From the NCBI GenBank assembly GCA_903930515.1, contig CAIYYW010000337.1, positions 1-9,815 of the forward strand: a stretch of DNA of 9,815 nt, read 5' to 3'. The translations under genes were made by a program, and so were the position numbers. Shown here one piece after another: positions 1 to 9,815 of the stretch. The notes beneath the pieces are model-generated. The model saw only the letters and a list, made by a program, of their open reading frames with translations, was not told the origin of the DNA and searched no databases. The stretch comes from an uncultured delta proteobacterium. GTDB taxonomy: Bacteria > RBG-13-61-14 > DRUE01. The stretch's first letter is position 1. Every line of letters begins with the position of its first letter.

Positions 1-131
1 ATGGTCATACCTGTGCCCTTGCCTCTTCTGATGAAGTAAAGTGCTGGGGGTGGAATGGGTATGGTCAACTTGGAAATGGCACAAAGACTGATAGCAATAT
101 TCCAGTAAATGTGATTGGATTTGGGCCGTAA
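1..131 (+). CDS. RCC1-repeat protein, C-terminal end (5' truncated by window)
   Basis: An open frame enters from the left edge (first full codon at base 3) and ends at TAA 129-131. It encodes about 42 residues containing GHTCALASS, then [16 protein letters not shown], then a PVNV segment. This matches the RCC1 / alpha-tubulin-suppressor blade consensus (HTCAL, CWG-N--GQLG-GT, PV-V). It is therefore the last blade of a beta-propeller repeat protein that stops right after the repeat. Bacterial proteins of this type are often secreted or surface-exposed with many tandem blades; that is family knowledge, since the rest of the protein lies outside the window. Function is unknown. The repeat assignment is firm; the size and domain content of the whole protein cannot be judged. 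Confidence 0.8.
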
Positions 132-512
132 ATTCAATAAGGCGAACATTGGGTCGGCAAGCTGGATCGCGCCCGGTTTCCTCGCGCTTCGCAGCGAACT
201 ACTTCGCAGAGCAGCAGTGGGCGCCAATTTAGTCTTGCTTTAATTCCAGCGGGACCGAAATAGGGCGGGGCAATCCAGCCCGAGGCGGGACCCTGGATTT
301 CGCCGCCCTTATTCCATATCCCAGGAAATCGGCGCCAGCTCAGAAACCACTTGACAAGGTTGGCAAAATGCGCTTGAATAATGTCCAAGAAACCGGGGGC
401 GATCCCCGCATTGTTCGGGGTTATTTGGCGACAGTCATTTAAGGGAAACGGTTTTGAAGGGGCATTTTCATTTTCAGCGGACAAGGGTTTTAAAGGGAGG
501 CCTTAAGGAAAA
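132..512. other. Intergenic stretch without a recognised gene
   Basis: These 381 bases separate the RCC1 gene end from the SDR gene. The minus strand has an open frame of 116 codons (484 to 134) with a TTG start. It has no Shine-Dalgarno site and no family I recognise; its second half is Arg/Cys/Leu-rich and looks unlike a folded protein, so I do not call it a gene. On the plus strand CTTCGCAG occurs twice close together at about 194-214, giving the area a repeat-like look. A possible promoter at 351-379 is listed separately. No terminator with a T tract is visible after the RCC1 stop. Confidence 0.4.
351..379 (+). promoter_or_regulatory. Possible sigma-70 promoter upstream of SDR gene
   Basis: A perfect -35 TTGACA (351-356) is followed after 17 bases by TTGAAT (374-379), which matches 4 of 6 of the -10 consensus. 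Transcription would start near 386, giving a leader of about 125 bases before the SDR start codon at 513. The spacing is ideal but the -10 is weak, so this is a candidate only. Confidence 0.35.
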
Positions 513-1706
513 ATGGGGACCGAAAGATTTAATTTGGTAACCGGCGCGTGCGGTTTTACGGGAACGCATCTGATGAAAAAATTATTGGACCAAGGGCAGA
601 AAGTCATCGCCACTGACCTGGCCAGGGCATTTGAGCACCCGAAAAACAAGATGATTTTCAAGACCCTCGGCCTTAATTTTGCCCACCCGAACTGCCGGGT
701 GATCCCGTCGGACCTGACCGACCAGGAAAGCCTGAAACCGTTGTTCCATCAGCCGTTAACCCATATATTCCATACCGCTTCCCTGTATGATTATTCCGCG
801 GCGCTGGCGATCTTACAAAAGGTCAACATCAACGGGTTTGTCAATCTGGCCGACCTTGCGGTGGAGCATAAAAGCCTGAAACGGTTCATCCATTGGAGCA
901 CCTGCGGTATTTTTGGGAAACCCTACACCGCCAAGGATGGCAAGTTGTGCAACATACCCTTTACCGAGGACTTTAACTCCTCGCCCAAAAACACGCCCTT
1001 TGAACAAGACCAGCCCACCGGCAGTCATTTGGTTAACGATTATTCCGTGACCAAGTGGAAGCAGGAACAGATCGCCTGGAAGTATCACCGGGAAAAGGGA
1101 TTGCCCCTGACGGTGGTCCGGCCGGCTCCCCTTTATGGCCCGGGCAGCGATTATGGCCACGGCGGAATCGTTCTGACCATCAACCGGGGTCTTTTGCCCG
1201 CGATTCCAACGGATTCAAAAAATTACATCACCACCTCATTGCACATTGAGGATATGGCTGGGTTTGCGGCTTTCATCGCCGACAAGGATTTCGGGGTGGG
1301 CGAGGATTACAATGTCGTGGACGACAGTATAATTTCCTATGACGATTTCGTCAGGTATCTTGCCCTGCTCCTCGGCCGAAGAATGCGCGGCATCCCCCTG
1401 CTCAGACAGACCTGGCTCCGGCCGGCGATGATCTTCGCGGCCAAACTCTGGCTCATCCTGGAGCAAAAATTGGGTGTGCCCCGGGTCAGGGTCTTTGAGG
1501 TCGGGTCCGCGACTTATATGTCATCCAGTTACTGGATCTCCAATAAAAAAACCAAGGAAGCGGGATATGTTTACCGCTATCCGGATGTGCGGGAAGGAAT
1601 GAGAGATACCATTGACTGGTTCCGAAGGGTGGGCTGGCTTGACCAGTCATACAATCCAAAAGCCATCTGGATGGAGAATATGGACGCGAAAAAAACGGCA
1701 AAATAA
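513..1706 (+). CDS. NAD(P)-dependent epimerase/dehydratase, extended SDR (3-beta-HSD-like)
   Basis: This 397-residue protein has an N-terminal Rossmann fold with the extended-SDR glycine motif TGACGFTG (residues 10-17). An acidic residue ends strand 2 (VIATD, Asp35), which favours NAD over NADP. The HTAS motif is at 87-90, and the catalytic set is Ser129 with Tyr177-x3-Lys181 in DYSVTK. RPAPLYGPG at 203-211 is the usual substrate-side motif. The family oxidises or epimerises sugar nucleotides, sterols or related alcohols. The overall pattern is closest in feel to 3-beta-hydroxysteroid dehydrogenase-like SDRs, but the substrate cannot be read from the sequence. A hydrophobic stretch around 302-317 may contact the membrane. 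The start is supported by GGAGG (496-500) and AAGGA (505-509) before the ATG. It appears to be a single gene, with 330 bases before the next one and no clear terminator. Confidence 0.88.
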   Translation: MGTERFNLVTGACGFTGTHLMKKLLDQGQKVIATDLARAFEHPKNKMIFKTLGLNFAHPNCRVIPSDLTDQESLKPLFHQPLTHIFHTASLYDYSAALAILQKVNINGFVNLADLAVEHKSLKRFIHWSTCGIFGKPYTAKDGKLCNIPFTEDFNSSPKNTPFEQDQPTGSHLVNDYSVTKWKQEQIAWKYHREKGLPLTVVRPAPLYGPGSDYGHGGIVLTINRGLLPAIPTDSKNYITTSLHIEDMAGFAAFIADKDFGVGEDYNVVDDSIISYDDFVRYLALLLGRRMRGIPLLRQTWLRPAMIFAAKLWLILEQKLGVPRVRVFEVGSATYMSSSYWISNKKTKEAGYVYRYPDVREGMRDTIDWFRRVGWLDQSYNPKAIWMENMDAKKTAK

Positions 1707-6960: not shown

Positions 6961-7043
6961 CGGATTTGGAGAAAAAGGCCAATGCCCTTGCTTTTAAACT
7001 TTAGACCTGACCCCCAGGCTCATGCCGGTTGATGAATGACCAA

Positions 7044-7073: not shown

Positions 7074-7724
7074 ATGAGTCTTTATGTATTGCTAAATCCT
7101 TACACAACCGGCAATTACGCATTTGGGATGAAGAGCTATGCCAAAAATGAGGAATCCAAGCATATGGGCGAAATGAGGAGATGCAGCGCTTGCGGTGAAA
7201 TCATCGGCCTGAGAGAATGGCTGCCTTCATTTCAAATCAAACTCTTACGAGGCGTAAAAACCAATAAGCCGGCCGATATTATTTGGGGTGTATATCGTGA
7301 TTTTATGACGAGCGAAAGATTTAGAAAGGTCTGGACGGAGACTAAGCTGAAAGGCATTGTTGAGTGGAGGAATGTAAAGATTGTCATCAAGAAACCTCTG
7401 CAAATGAAGTATTATTATCCCCTGTTCAAGCCTGCTACTGCTAGGCCGGATTTTAATAAGACAAAAGTTGCTTGGCGAAAGCATAATCCCCCGTTATGTC
7501 CGGTTTGCATGTGGTCTGATCATGAAGCAATAAAAGGGGTTTTTTTCGTTACAGAAACCATACCTGGCGATGACCTATTCCATTCCCTGGGCCTCAATGA
7601 AATTTTCGCTTCCGAACGATTCAAGAATGCCATGGAACAGGCTGGAATAACTGGGATAGAACTGATTCAAGCTGATAAATATGAATATGATGTCAGACCT
7701 TTAAGCAGGCTTGGGCCGTTTTGA
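7074..7724 (+). CDS. Double-CXXCG motif protein, probable immunity protein (SitI-like)
   Basis: This 216-residue soluble protein has CSACG at 37-41 and CPVC at 142-145. Each cysteine motif is followed by a similar half-domain: one holds ADIIW...SERF...LKGI (about 67-96), the other GDDLF...SERF...ITGI (about 165-195). This internally duplicated layout matches the double-CXXCG family known from Myxococcus, which includes immunity proteins for Sit polymorphic toxins. The cysteine pairs probably bind a metal. The second motif lacks the glycine (CPVCM). Start: GGAGG at 7061-7065, 8 bases before the ATG. A sampled stretch is near 42% G+C, against about 58% in the kinase gene, consistent with transfer. 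No toxin domain precedes it; an Rhs fragment begins 17 bases after its stop. Its role as immunity protein is inferred from family and context; the cognate toxin is absent. Confidence 0.65.
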   Translation: MSLYVLLNPYTTGNYAFGMKSYAKNEESKHMGEMRRCSACGEIIGLREWLPSFQIKLLRGVKTNKPADIIWGVYRDFMTSERFRKVWTETKLKGIVEWRNVKIVIKKPLQMKYYYPLFKPATARPDFNKTKVAWRKHNPPLCPVCMWSDHEAIKGVFFVTETIPGDDLFHSLGLNEIFASERFKNAMEQAGITGIELIQADKYEYDVRPLSRLGPF

Positions 7725-7741
7725 AATAGTAGAATGATATT

Positions 7742-9082
7742 ATGAAAATATATAGATCTATATATCCCTTCGGGGAACAGAGAGAAGGAAATGACTGCCT
7801 GCAGGCCGTGGTTTCGGAAGCCGTCCCCATCGGAGCAGACACCGTCACCATTCATTACGCCTCCGGCGGTTCGGTTACCAGCAATGCCCTCGCGCAGGAC
7901 ATTGAATATAGGACTATCCAGATCAGCCGGATTCTGGATGCCGATGGCAGCGAGATCACAACCACGGCTTGGATCAACGACCTCATCTACCTGGAAGGCA
8001 GCAATTTTTCAACCACCCTAGCCAACAACGCCATCACTTTCACGGGTGAATCCAGTCAGGTAACCATCTACCCGCTTGCCTGGGGCAATACCTGCAATCC
8101 CTCCTATCAATGCCTGCAAGCCAAAATCTCCAACCTGGTCCCCACCGGCAACGACACCGTCTCGGTCCATTATGTCTTGGGCGGACCTGATCCTAGCAAC
8201 ACCGTAGAGCTGAATATTACCGGCGTGTTCTATTACCACAATAACCAGGTCGGAACCCCGGTCGCCATTACGGACTCGGAGCGCAATGTGGTCTGGAGGG
8301 CAGAATACTTTCCGTTCGGGGATGTGGTGGATGCAACCGTGCAGACCGTCGGAAACCACCTCAATCGCCGCAAACTCACCGGCCACTATCAGGACGATGA
8401 GCTGGTGCTTGATAATGAGGGCGATGAAAACGATGCCTCGCTCGTCTATATGAAGGCCCGATATTATGACACCCAGATCGGGAGGTTCTACAGCCCGGAC
8501 CCGATTGGGGCGACCGGGGAAAAGGGCAGTGCAAATCAGGATTATGCATATTCATACGTGGGCAATAACCCGATCTTAAGATTAGACCCGTCCGGTTTGT
8601 GGTATATTGAAGCTAACATTGGTGTTCCTATTCCATTATTTGGACCATCTTTCGGAGTGGCTCTTGACTTTCCTGAGGGCGAAAAGTATAAAGTATATGG
8701 ATATGGCGGGTTGGGAGTATTCACTCCTGGTCTTAGTGGATCTATAACTATATCACTAAATGATGTTGCAAAATGGAATGCGGGATTACAGGGGCAATTT
8801 ATTGGCGCTGCTCAAGTGGGCGTAGATGCCGAAGCTTTTGCGGATTGGTATGACCGAAAAATACCTTGGGGTGAGTCTGGACCTACAGTTTCAAAAGAGT
8901 TGAAAGATCTAATAGATACAGGATTTTATGAATTTGGCGCGGGTGGCAGTGTTCCATTTGACATTGGAGTATCCTTGACTGGATTCAGAACATTTTTGAT
9001 ATATGACGAAAATTTTCCCGAAGATGATCGGTGGGGGTATGAAGATAGCTGGGAAGAACTTGAGAAGGAACTTGAACCATAA
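7742..9082 (+). CDS. Headless Rhs core fragment fused to a glycine-rich C-terminal tip (orphan toxin cassette)
   Basis: 446 residues. Residues 18-43 and 124-148 are two copies of a CLQA-type beta unit (CLQAVVSEAVP and CLQAKISNLVP, each ending in an HY--GG segment). Residues about 163-286 are the Rhs-associated core: YYHNNQVGTPVAITDS, VVWRAEYFPFGD, YMKARYYDTQIGRF, YVGNNPILRLDPSGL. After DPSGL (282-286) a 160-residue tip starts abruptly at lower G+C. It is rich in glycine and beta-prone (GVPIPLFGPSFGVALDF, VYGYGGLGVF) and ends in an acidic tail; I do not recognise it. Full Rhs toxins have over 1000 residues with signals and YD repeats, all missing here. No Shine-Dalgarno site precedes the ATG, which sits in an 18-bp palindrome. 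It is therefore most likely a silent displaced 3' cassette. The two-helix protein 17 bases downstream is the likely immunity partner. Toxic activity is inferred, not shown. Confidence 0.8.
   Translation: MKIYRSIYPFGEQREGNDCLQAVVSEAVPIGADTVTIHYASGGSVTSNALAQDIEYRTIQISRILDADGSEITTTAWINDLIYLEGSNFSTTLANNAITFTGESSQVTIYPLAWGNTCNPSYQCLQAKISNLVPTGNDTVSVHYVLGGPDPSNTVELNITGVFYYHNNQVGTPVAITDSERNVVWRAEYFPFGDVVDATVQTVGNHLNRRKLTGHYQDDELVLDNEGDENDASLVYMKARYYDTQIGRFYSPDPIGATGEKGSANQDYAYSYVGNNPILRLDPSGLWYIEANIGVPIPLFGPSFGVALDFPEGEKYKVYGYGGLGVFTPGLSGSITISLNDVAKWNAGLQGQFIGAAQVGVDAEAFADWYDRKIPWGESGPTVSKELKDLIDTGFYEFGAGGSVPFDIGVSLTGFRTFLIYDENFPEDDRWGYEDSWEELEKELEP
7748..7765. repeat. Perfect 18-bp palindrome at the immunity/Rhs junction
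   Basis: ATATATAGATCTATATAT is its own reverse complement. It lies just after the ATG at 7742, exactly where AT-rich sequence from the preceding immunity gene meets GC-rich Rhs sequence. It could be an operator, a hairpin hiding the start codon, or a recombination scar; the sequence alone does not decide. Confidence 0.8.
8138..8363 (+). repeat. Direct repeat, copy 1 (Rhs core DNA)
   Basis: This segment is repeated at 9590-9815, with an offset of 1452 bases. Over the 226 bases visible I count 4 mismatches (about 98% identity): three in and near the codons for VELNIT and one in the codons for SERN. It encodes the Rhs segment from VPTGNDTVSVHY to about VGNHL. The repeat probably continues past the right edge of the window. 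Confidence 0.95.
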
Positions 9083-9099
9083 TAATTAAGGAGGATATT

Positions 9100-9387
9100 A
9101 TGAAATTCCCAATACCCCTTCCGCTTTTTTACTCATGTGGCATACTTCTGGGCTTATATTTTGTTATTTTCTCCAATAGAATAGCAAATAGATACGCAAA
9201 AAAGAGAACAATATATTATGCTCGCAAGAGCGAGGGAATAATTTTAACCGATGACATGATATATAATAAGAAGTCTTATTATTATCTCGAATATCGGGAC
9301 TATTATAATATGTGTAAATATATGACTATAATAGTTGGCGTTTTATCTATTGTTTATTGTGTATTATGGTTTATTATAGACTCATAA
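9100..9387 (+). CDS. Small two-helix membrane protein, probable immunity protein of the preceding tip
   Basis: This 95-residue protein has two hydrophobic helices at about 8-25 (PLFYSCGILLGLYFVIFS) and 75-93 (MTIIVGVLSIVYCVLWFII). They are joined by a polar, basic, tyrosine-rich loop of about 50 residues, giving a hairpin topology in the inner membrane. AAGGAGG (9088-9094) lies 5 bases before the ATG, a strong site, in contrast to the Rhs fragments on either side. It begins 17 bases after the stop of the Rhs tip ORF. A sampled part is near 32% G+C, much lower than the Rhs core (57% in a sample). I do not recognise a named family. Position directly after an Rhs tip and before the next Rhs fragment is the standard place for the cognate immunity gene, and a membrane location suggests a toxin that acts at the membrane. 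This role is inferred from context. Confidence 0.6.
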   Translation: MKFPIPLPLFYSCGILLGLYFVIFSNRIANRYAKKRTIYYARKSEGIILTDDMIYNKKSYYYLEYRDYYNMCKYMTIIVGVLSIVYCVLWFIIDS

Positions 9388-9421
9388 GGCTTTTGAGCGA
9401 ATATTAAGATTACTAAAAAGC

Positions 9422-9815
9422 ATGAGAATGATAAATATTTTAGGCAAATACTCGCAAAATGTATCTAGGGGGACGAACGGTAGGGAAATGTTCAAATACG
9501 GCAGCGCCCAGGCGATCATTGCTCCGTATGCCTGCAGCGACCGGTTCGTGCCCGACGCTGACTGCCTGCAAGCCGTGATCTCGGAAGCCGTCCCCACCGG
9601 CAACGACACCGTCTCGGTCCATTATGTCTTGGGCGGACCTGATCCTAGCAACACCGTGGAGCTGAATGTAACCGGCGTGTTCTATTACCACAATAACCAG
9701 GTCGGAACCCCGGTCGCCATTACGGACTCGGAGCGGAATGTGGTCTGGAGGGCAGAATACTTTCCGTTCGGGGATGTGGTGGATGCAACCGTGCAGACCG
9801 TCGGAAACCACCTCA
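9422..9815 (+). CDS. Second headless Rhs core fragment, 3' truncated by window
   Basis: A frame open from about 9380 runs off the right edge. ATGs in frame lie at 9422, 9428 and 9488; none has a good ribosome binding site, so the start shown is the most upstream one and is uncertain. From 9488 it reads MFKYGSAQAIIAPYACS, then a CLQAVISEAVP unit, VPTGNDTVSVHYVLGG and the Rhs core signature YYHNNQVGTPVAITDS ... VVWRAEYFPFGD. The last 226 bases are nearly identical to part of the upstream Rhs fragment. The first 60 or so bases are AT-rich and unrelated to Rhs, as expected for a fragment joined behind the previous immunity gene. Another tip domain and immunity gene would be expected just beyond the window. 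Like the first fragment it is probably a silent cassette. Confidence 0.75.
   Translation, partial: MRMINILGKYSQNVSRGTNGREMFKYGSAQAIIAPYACSDRFVPDADCLQAVISEAVPTGNDTVSVHYVLGGPDPSNTVELNVTGVFYYHNNQVGTPVAITDSERNVVWRAEYFPFGDVVDATVQTVGNHL
9590..9815 (+). repeat. Direct repeat, copy 2 (Rhs core DNA)
   Basis: Second copy of the 226-bp segment at 8138-8363, same orientation, 4 mismatches. Together the two copies flank the glycine-rich tip and its membrane immunity gene, so homologous recombination between them would remove exactly one tip-immunity cassette of 1452 bp. Confidence 0.95.

What the first reader, a model, noticed from the sequence alone, without database searches (positions are those of the whole stretch)
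7074..9815. Array of displaced Rhs toxin tips and immunity genes
Seen: immunity-like gene, headless Rhs core plus tip, small membrane gene, second headless Rhs core, all on one strand with 17-base gaps between the first genes. The Rhs pieces lack N-terminal parts and good ribosome binding sites, while both immunity candidates have strong ones. Known: Rhs and CDI loci often carry orphan tip-immunity cassettes that share core homology with a full-length gene. Inferred: this is such an array, with silent tips and expressed immunity, possibly a memory of past toxin types.
Basis: partly seen in the sequence, partly recalled or inferred. Interest (0 to 1): 0.8.

Follow-up and report, generated by a model that had tools for sequence, protein, structure and literature searches.

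The report
Orphan Rhs toxin-tip and immunity array
This stretch is a small storehouse of detached toxin tips and antidote genes from an Rhs contact-killing system, an arrangement already well described in enteric bacteria and here found in a poorly sampled lineage, with one toxin-antidote pair that matches nothing in the libraries searched.

Summary
At 7074-9815 lie, on one strand, (1) an Imm11/Imm43/SitI6-like double-CXXC immunity gene without a toxin upstream, (2) a headless Rhs core with an unclassified tip, (3) a 95-aa two-helix membrane protein in the immunity position, and (4) a second headless Rhs core cut off by the contig end. The gaps are 17, 17 and 34 bases. The two cores share 95% DNA identity over 253 bp, and the final 79 bp are identical, which explains the contig break. 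Core DNA has normal GC (54%); tip, immunity and membrane genes are AT-rich (42, 43, 30%). Relatives show the same layout: one of the same order has a 2,480-aa SpvB/TcdB-type Rhs gene followed by three orphan units with 75-78% core DNA identity. These are orphan rhs-CT/rhsI modules as published by Poole 2011 and Koskiniemi 2014. No full-length Rhs gene was found in this draft genome. 'Silent tips' is only partly supported: the first piece lacks a ribosome site, but the second has a candidate in-frame ATG, and across relatives the contrast is not significant when every start is considered. New member of a known kind.

The parts
6996..7014 (+). Solo end (AAACTTTAGACCTGACCCC) of a REP-associated tyrosine transposase (RAYT/Y1) type element, 59 bp upstream of the immunity gene
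   Evidence: 27 copies in the genome against 0 for the reversed control pattern; full elements with an inverted GGGGTCAGG end on either side of a Y1_Tnp / REP_Tyr_transpos gene at C25
7074..7724 (+). Orphan immunity gene, Imm11/Imm43/SitI6-like, double CXXC (C37-x2-C40, C142-x2-C145); no toxin piece upstream
   Evidence: Imm11 2e-4, Gmx_para_CXXCG 9e-4, Imm43 1.2e-3, all just under the curated cut-offs; homologs directly behind a SitA6-type Rhs tip in G267; strong SD -11.1
7742..8599 (+). Headless Rhs core of orphan unit 1 (PF03527 at about 8225-8326, TIGR03696 at about 8306-8599, ends in DPSGL)
   Evidence: no SD site; GC 53.5%
8600..9082 (+). Tip 1: about 160-aa C-terminal toxin domain of unknown family, AT-rich
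   Evidence: follows DPSGL; GC 41.8%; no Pfam family, no convincing PDB match, no plasmid match, no match in 385 other genomes
9100..9387 (+). 95-aa protein with two predicted transmembrane helices, in the position of tip 1's immunity gene
   Evidence: hydropathy peaks at about residues 4-25 and 70-95; strong SD -10.0; GC 29.5%; no real homolog
9422..9815 (+). Headless Rhs core of orphan unit 2, runs off the contig end; shared core DNA starts at 9463
   Evidence: PF03527 3.8e-12; 95% DNA identity of 9563-9815 to 8111-8363, the last 79 bp identical; 9463-9601 matches C372:1-139 with one mismatch

Best explanation
It is an array of orphan Rhs modules (rhs-CT/rhsI). Shown: two headless copies of the same Rhs core, the first ending at the DPSGL boundary in a tip, with an AT-rich membrane-protein gene right behind the tip, and in front an immunity gene of the SitI6/Imm11/Imm43 type whose own toxin is missing. 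Inferred: each unit arose when a new core-tip-immunity cassette recombined by its core into the locus and pushed the older tip out of the main gene. The displaced tips lack export and start signals and stay silent or nearly so, while the immunity genes are translated and protect against kin or neighbours that still fire the old tips. Recombination between the shared cores could put a stored tip back on a main gene. The tip missing in front of 7074 is predicted to have been SitA6/DUF2380-like. Tip 1, paired with a two-helix membrane immunity protein, probably acts on or is inserted into the inner membrane (inferred from the immunity type only).
For: Rhs families on both pieces. Core DNA shared at 95% with a 79-bp identical end, and a third core stub at C372. 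GC step from core to tip to immunity, 53.5 / 41.8 / 29.5%. Strong SD on both immunity-position genes, none on rhs piece 1. Same-order relative G002:C106: full-length 2,480-aa SpvB-TcdB_mid-Rhs gene followed by immunity-position genes and three orphan core copies at 75-78% DNA identity, one of them in a unit with an M23-peptidase tip. Same-genus G001:C494: core-tip, membrane protein, core-tip, PD40 protein, core stub. G107:C159: four headless units, cores 85-90% alike, tips mostly different. G267:C52: three double-CXXC homologs of the 7074 gene 7-13 bp apart behind an Rhs tip matching SitA6 TIGR02269 and DUF2380.
Against: No full-length Rhs gene was found in this genome, so the main gene these pieces would belong to is not shown; the assembly is fragmented (401 contigs). 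The immunity family hits are just below the curated cut-offs. Tip 1 and the 95-aa protein have no homolog, so toxicity and pairing are inferred from position alone. An ATG at 9488 in unit 2 has a possible ribosome site. Over relatives, when all in-frame starts in the first 100 nt are allowed, orphan Rhs starts are not significantly weaker than immunity starts (p = 0.08, n = 12 and 17).
Confidence: 0.87

Rival explanations
1. One or two ordinary Rhs genes decayed by mutation or transposition: the pieces are pseudogene remnants with no function, kept by chance.
For: A core stub at C372 stops after about 149 bp where a RAYT-type end begins, and another RAYT end lies 59 bp in front of 7074, so mobile-element decay occurs here. 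G001:C494 also ends in a broken core stub.
Against: Frames of 446, 95 and 216 aa are open and intact; both immunity-position genes have strong SD sites; of the 7 codon differences between the cores only one is a conservative replacement after the VPTG motif; the same core-tip-immunity layout recurs in several lineages.
Confidence: 0.1
2. Assembly artefact: chimeric joining or repeat collapse created the second core copy and the headless pieces.
For: The contig ends inside the repeat, and the draft genome has 401 contigs.
Against: The two cores differ at 13 of 253 bases and are separated by unique tip and immunity sequence; the upstream part of unit 2 is seen again, with a different continuation, in C372; relatives have real multi-unit arrays inside longer contigs (G002:C106 is 122 kb).
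Confidence: 0.03
3. The headless Rhs pieces are translated and are free toxins or delivered by another route, with translation coupled to the gene in front.
For: Gaps of 17 and 34 bases would permit re-initiation; unit 2 has an in-frame ATG at 9488 with a -8.4 site.
Against: No SD at 7742 and no signal or delivery domain on either piece; no VipB, hence no sign of a type VI system, in the three genomes of the phylum.
Confidence: 0.12

Closest known systems
Orphan rhs-CT/rhsI modules of Salmonella (StLT2 rhs locus) and other Enterobacteriaceae (PMC3967940)
   Same: Headless core fragment, variable tip after a DPxG motif, immunity gene right behind, lack of start signals on the tip, several units in a row (up to eleven reported).
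   Different: Here no main rhs gene is found in the draft genome, the core is of a different lineage (a related genome carries an SpvB/TcdB-type Rhs, and no T6SS marker was found), and the first unit has lost its tip.
Orphan cdiA-CT/cdiI modules (PMC3150448)
   Same: Same logic of displaced tips and expressed immunity; the idea of an immunity repertoire was stated there.
   Different: CdiA/VENN two-partner system, not Rhs.
T6SS orphan immunity gene arrays of Vibrio cholerae (PMC5361080)
   Same: Old immunity genes kept after the toxin was displaced, as for the 7074 gene.
   Different: T6SS effectors; the displaced effectors are replaced rather than kept as headless core copies.
SitA6/SitI6 (TIGR02269/TIGR02264) and Imm11/Imm43
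   Same: 7074 gene: double CXXC and weak hits to all three families; homologs in G267 sit behind a SitA6-type Rhs tip.
   Different: About 25% identity to the G267 proteins and below the curated cut-offs; no SitA6-type toxin next to it in the window.

Membership tests
Orphan rhs-CT/rhsI array | Rhs core fragment without the N-terminal part | tested here: met
   PF03527/TIGR03696 on short ORFs, no YD repeats upstream
Orphan rhs-CT/rhsI array | Variable tip beginning at the DPxG motif | tested here: met
   DPSGL then an unrelated AT-rich 160-aa tip
Orphan rhs-CT/rhsI array | Small immunity gene directly behind each tip | tested here: inconclusive
   95-aa two-TM ORF 17 bp behind tip 1 with a strong SD; family unknown; unit 2 is not visible
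Orphan rhs-CT/rhsI array | Core DNA shared among the units | tested here: met
   95% over 253 bp, third stub at C372
Orphan rhs-CT/rhsI array | Full-length main rhs gene with matching core in the same genome (usual, not strictly required) | tested here: inconclusive
   None found in the 401-contig draft, but contigs break at these repeats and the draft is 93% complete; present in the same-order relative G002
Orphan rhs-CT/rhsI array | Tip lacks translation start signals while immunity has them | tested here: inconclusive
   Clear for unit 1; unit 2 has a candidate ATG at 9488; relatives p = 0.08
Orphan rhs-CT/rhsI array | Toxicity of the tip and specific protection | not testable with these tools
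   needs co-expression
SitI6/Imm11/Imm43 immunity protein | Profile match above the curated cut-off | tested here: not met
   21.2/22.1, 19.1/25 and 19/25 bits; so it is called SitI6-like, not a member
SitI6/Imm11/Imm43 immunity protein | Double CXXC motif | tested here: met
   C37-SA-C40 and C142-PV-C145; C37, C142 and C145 are invariant in the 4-sequence alignment
SitI6/Imm11/Imm43 immunity protein | Located next to a polymorphic toxin, SitA6 type | tested here: inconclusive
   met for homologs in G267:C52; for the window gene itself the toxin is missing

The most novel reading that the evidence does not exclude
The genome keeps an Rhs immunity and tip bank without any main Rhs gene, i.e. 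a purely defensive archive, and tip 1 with its 95-aa membrane partner is a new toxin-immunity family.
Probability: 0.2. Interest if true: 0.5.

Novelty: new member of a known kind. Interest (0 to 1): 0.3.

Why it matters
It extends orphan Rhs tip/immunity arrays to a sparsely sampled lineage (3 genomes of its phylum held here) in which a full-length Rhs relative is SpvB/TcdB-type and no VipB is found. This suggests that displacement and storage of tips is a general property of Rhs loci rather than one of PAAR/T6SS Rhs. It also names one unclassified tip/membrane-immunity pair to test.

Tried and rejected
AlphaFold of tip 1 and of the 7074 protein as single sequences gave pLDDT 34 and 38, unusable, so no fold search was made. 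PDB sequence searches gave nothing convincing. No remnant of a SitA6-type tip was found upstream of 7074. Plasmid searches for the 7074 protein and tip 1 found nothing. Hits to the 95-aa protein in other genomes are short, weak and often cross stops, judged chance hydrophobic matches. A first, unfair SD comparison (first start for Rhs, best start for immunity) looked striking; the fair one did not reach significance.

Full report
What is there. The window is the whole 9,815-bp contig C337 of a 401-contig draft genome, 93% complete. Left of 6,620 lie ordinary genes: an epimerase, a DUF6178 protein, a DUF4349 protein and a PAS-kinase-receiver protein. At 7074-9815 lie four same-strand ORFs: a 216-aa protein, a 446-aa Rhs piece, a 95-aa protein and a second Rhs piece that runs off the contig. 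The gaps are 17, 17 and 34 bases.

The Rhs pieces. Both match PF03527 far above the cut-off, and the first also matches the Rhs-associated core TIGR03696. Neither has upstream YD repeats, and PF05593 and TEN_YD-shell give no hit anywhere in the draft genome. The copies share 253 bp at 95%. Of the 7 codon differences, 3 are silent and 4 are replacements, and 3 of those 4 replacements cluster at the left edge of the shared block. The last 79 bp of the contig are identical to unit 1, so the break is what a repeat does to a short-read assembly (inference). A third copy of the upstream part of the unit-2 core stands at the end of C372 (139 bp, one mismatch) and stops where a RAYT-type element end begins. 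C167 carries another headless Rhs unit with a different core, right behind a gene that resembles 6-pyruvoyl-tetrahydropterin synthase/QueD (my reading of the sequence, not tested against a family).

Composition. GC is 55% in the ordinary genes, 53.5% in core 1, 41.8% in tip 1, 29.5% in the 95-aa gene and 42.7% in the first immunity gene. A core of normal GC followed by an AT-rich tip and immunity gene is typical of Rhs elements (general knowledge).

The immunity genes. The 216-aa protein matches Imm11 (2e-4), Gmx_para_CXXCG (9e-4) and Imm43 (1.2e-3), each just under its cut-off. It has two CXXC pairs. Its homologs in genome G267 form a tandem trio directly behind an Rhs tip that matches SitA6 (TIGR02269) and DUF2380. 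It is therefore best read as a SitI6-like immunity protein, and the toxin that should precede it is absent. The 95-aa protein has two hydrophobic segments and no homolog. It is assigned as immunity to tip 1 by position and by its strong ribosome site only.

Start sites. SD energies are -11.1 (7074), -0.1 (7742), -10.0 (9100) and +0.3 (9422) kcal/mol, with an in-frame ATG at 9488 in unit 2 at -8.4. In the relatives, immunity starts are strong (median -9.9), but orphan Rhs ORFs also have candidate internal starts (median -7.65), and the difference is not significant (p = 0.08).

Relatives. The same-order genome G002 has on C106 a 2,480-aa Rhs gene with SpvB, FG-GAP, TcdB_midN and RHS repeats. 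Behind it come an immunity-position gene and then three orphan core copies at 75-78% DNA identity to the main gene, each separated by further genes; the first of these units ends in a separate ORF with an M23 peptidase domain. The same-genus G001:C494 shows core-tip, membrane protein, core-tip, PD40 protein, core stub, with cores 77% alike. G107:C159 has four headless units with cores 85-90% alike and mostly different tips. None of the three genomes of the phylum has VipB.

Verdict against the literature. Koskiniemi et al. 2014 (PMC3967940) describe orphan rhs-CT/rhsI modules downstream of main rhs genes, lacking start signals and activated by recombination with the main gene, with up to eleven modules per strain. 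Poole et al. 2011 (PMC3150448) propose that expressed orphan immunity genes give broad protection. Kirchberger et al. 2017 (PMC5361080) describe retained immunity genes after effector displacement. The locus fits these descriptions. It is a new member of a known kind, in a new lineage, with an unclassified tip 1/95-aa pair.

Limits. The main gene, if any, is not in the draft. Unit 2 is truncated by the contig end. Toxicity, pairing and expression are untested. Single-sequence structure predictions were unusable.

Noticed in passing
window 6996-7014; L008 (C372) 155-173; L057 (C25): A dispersed element end (AAACTWWAGMCCTGACCCC, 27 copies against 0 for the control pattern) belongs to REP-associated tyrosine transposase elements; solo ends lie beside two of the Rhs remnants, so these elements may have trimmed the locus.
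   Followed up: partly
L041, L039, L043, L045 (G002:C106, G001:C494, G107:C159, G107:C18): Many immunity-position genes behind orphan Rhs tips encode 290-440-aa proteins with apparent export signals; one matches PD40 beta-propeller repeats and several others look similar by eye. They could be a recurrent class of exported immunity proteins.
   Followed up: no
L041 8671-9180 and 6376-7575 (G002:C106): Two orphan units carry M23-peptidase-like tips: one is a separate ORF with a PF01551 match, the other was judged by eye from the sequence.
   Followed up: partly
L009 (C167) 93-836 minus strand: Another headless Rhs unit with a cysteine-rich tip starts 4 bases inside the end of a QueD-like gene and ends about 90 bp from the contig end, so its immunity gene is not seen.
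   Followed up: partly
L050 (G267:C52) 914-2956: Three tandem, diverged double-CXXC immunity genes follow a single SitA6-type Rhs tip, itself a small immunity array.
   Followed up: partly
window 7793-7903, 8108-8218, 9560-9670: A short repeated protein motif (DCLQAVISEAVPTGNDTVSVHY) occurs twice in unit 1 and once in unit 2; outside this genome it was not found in any other Rhs locus fetched.
   Followed up: partly
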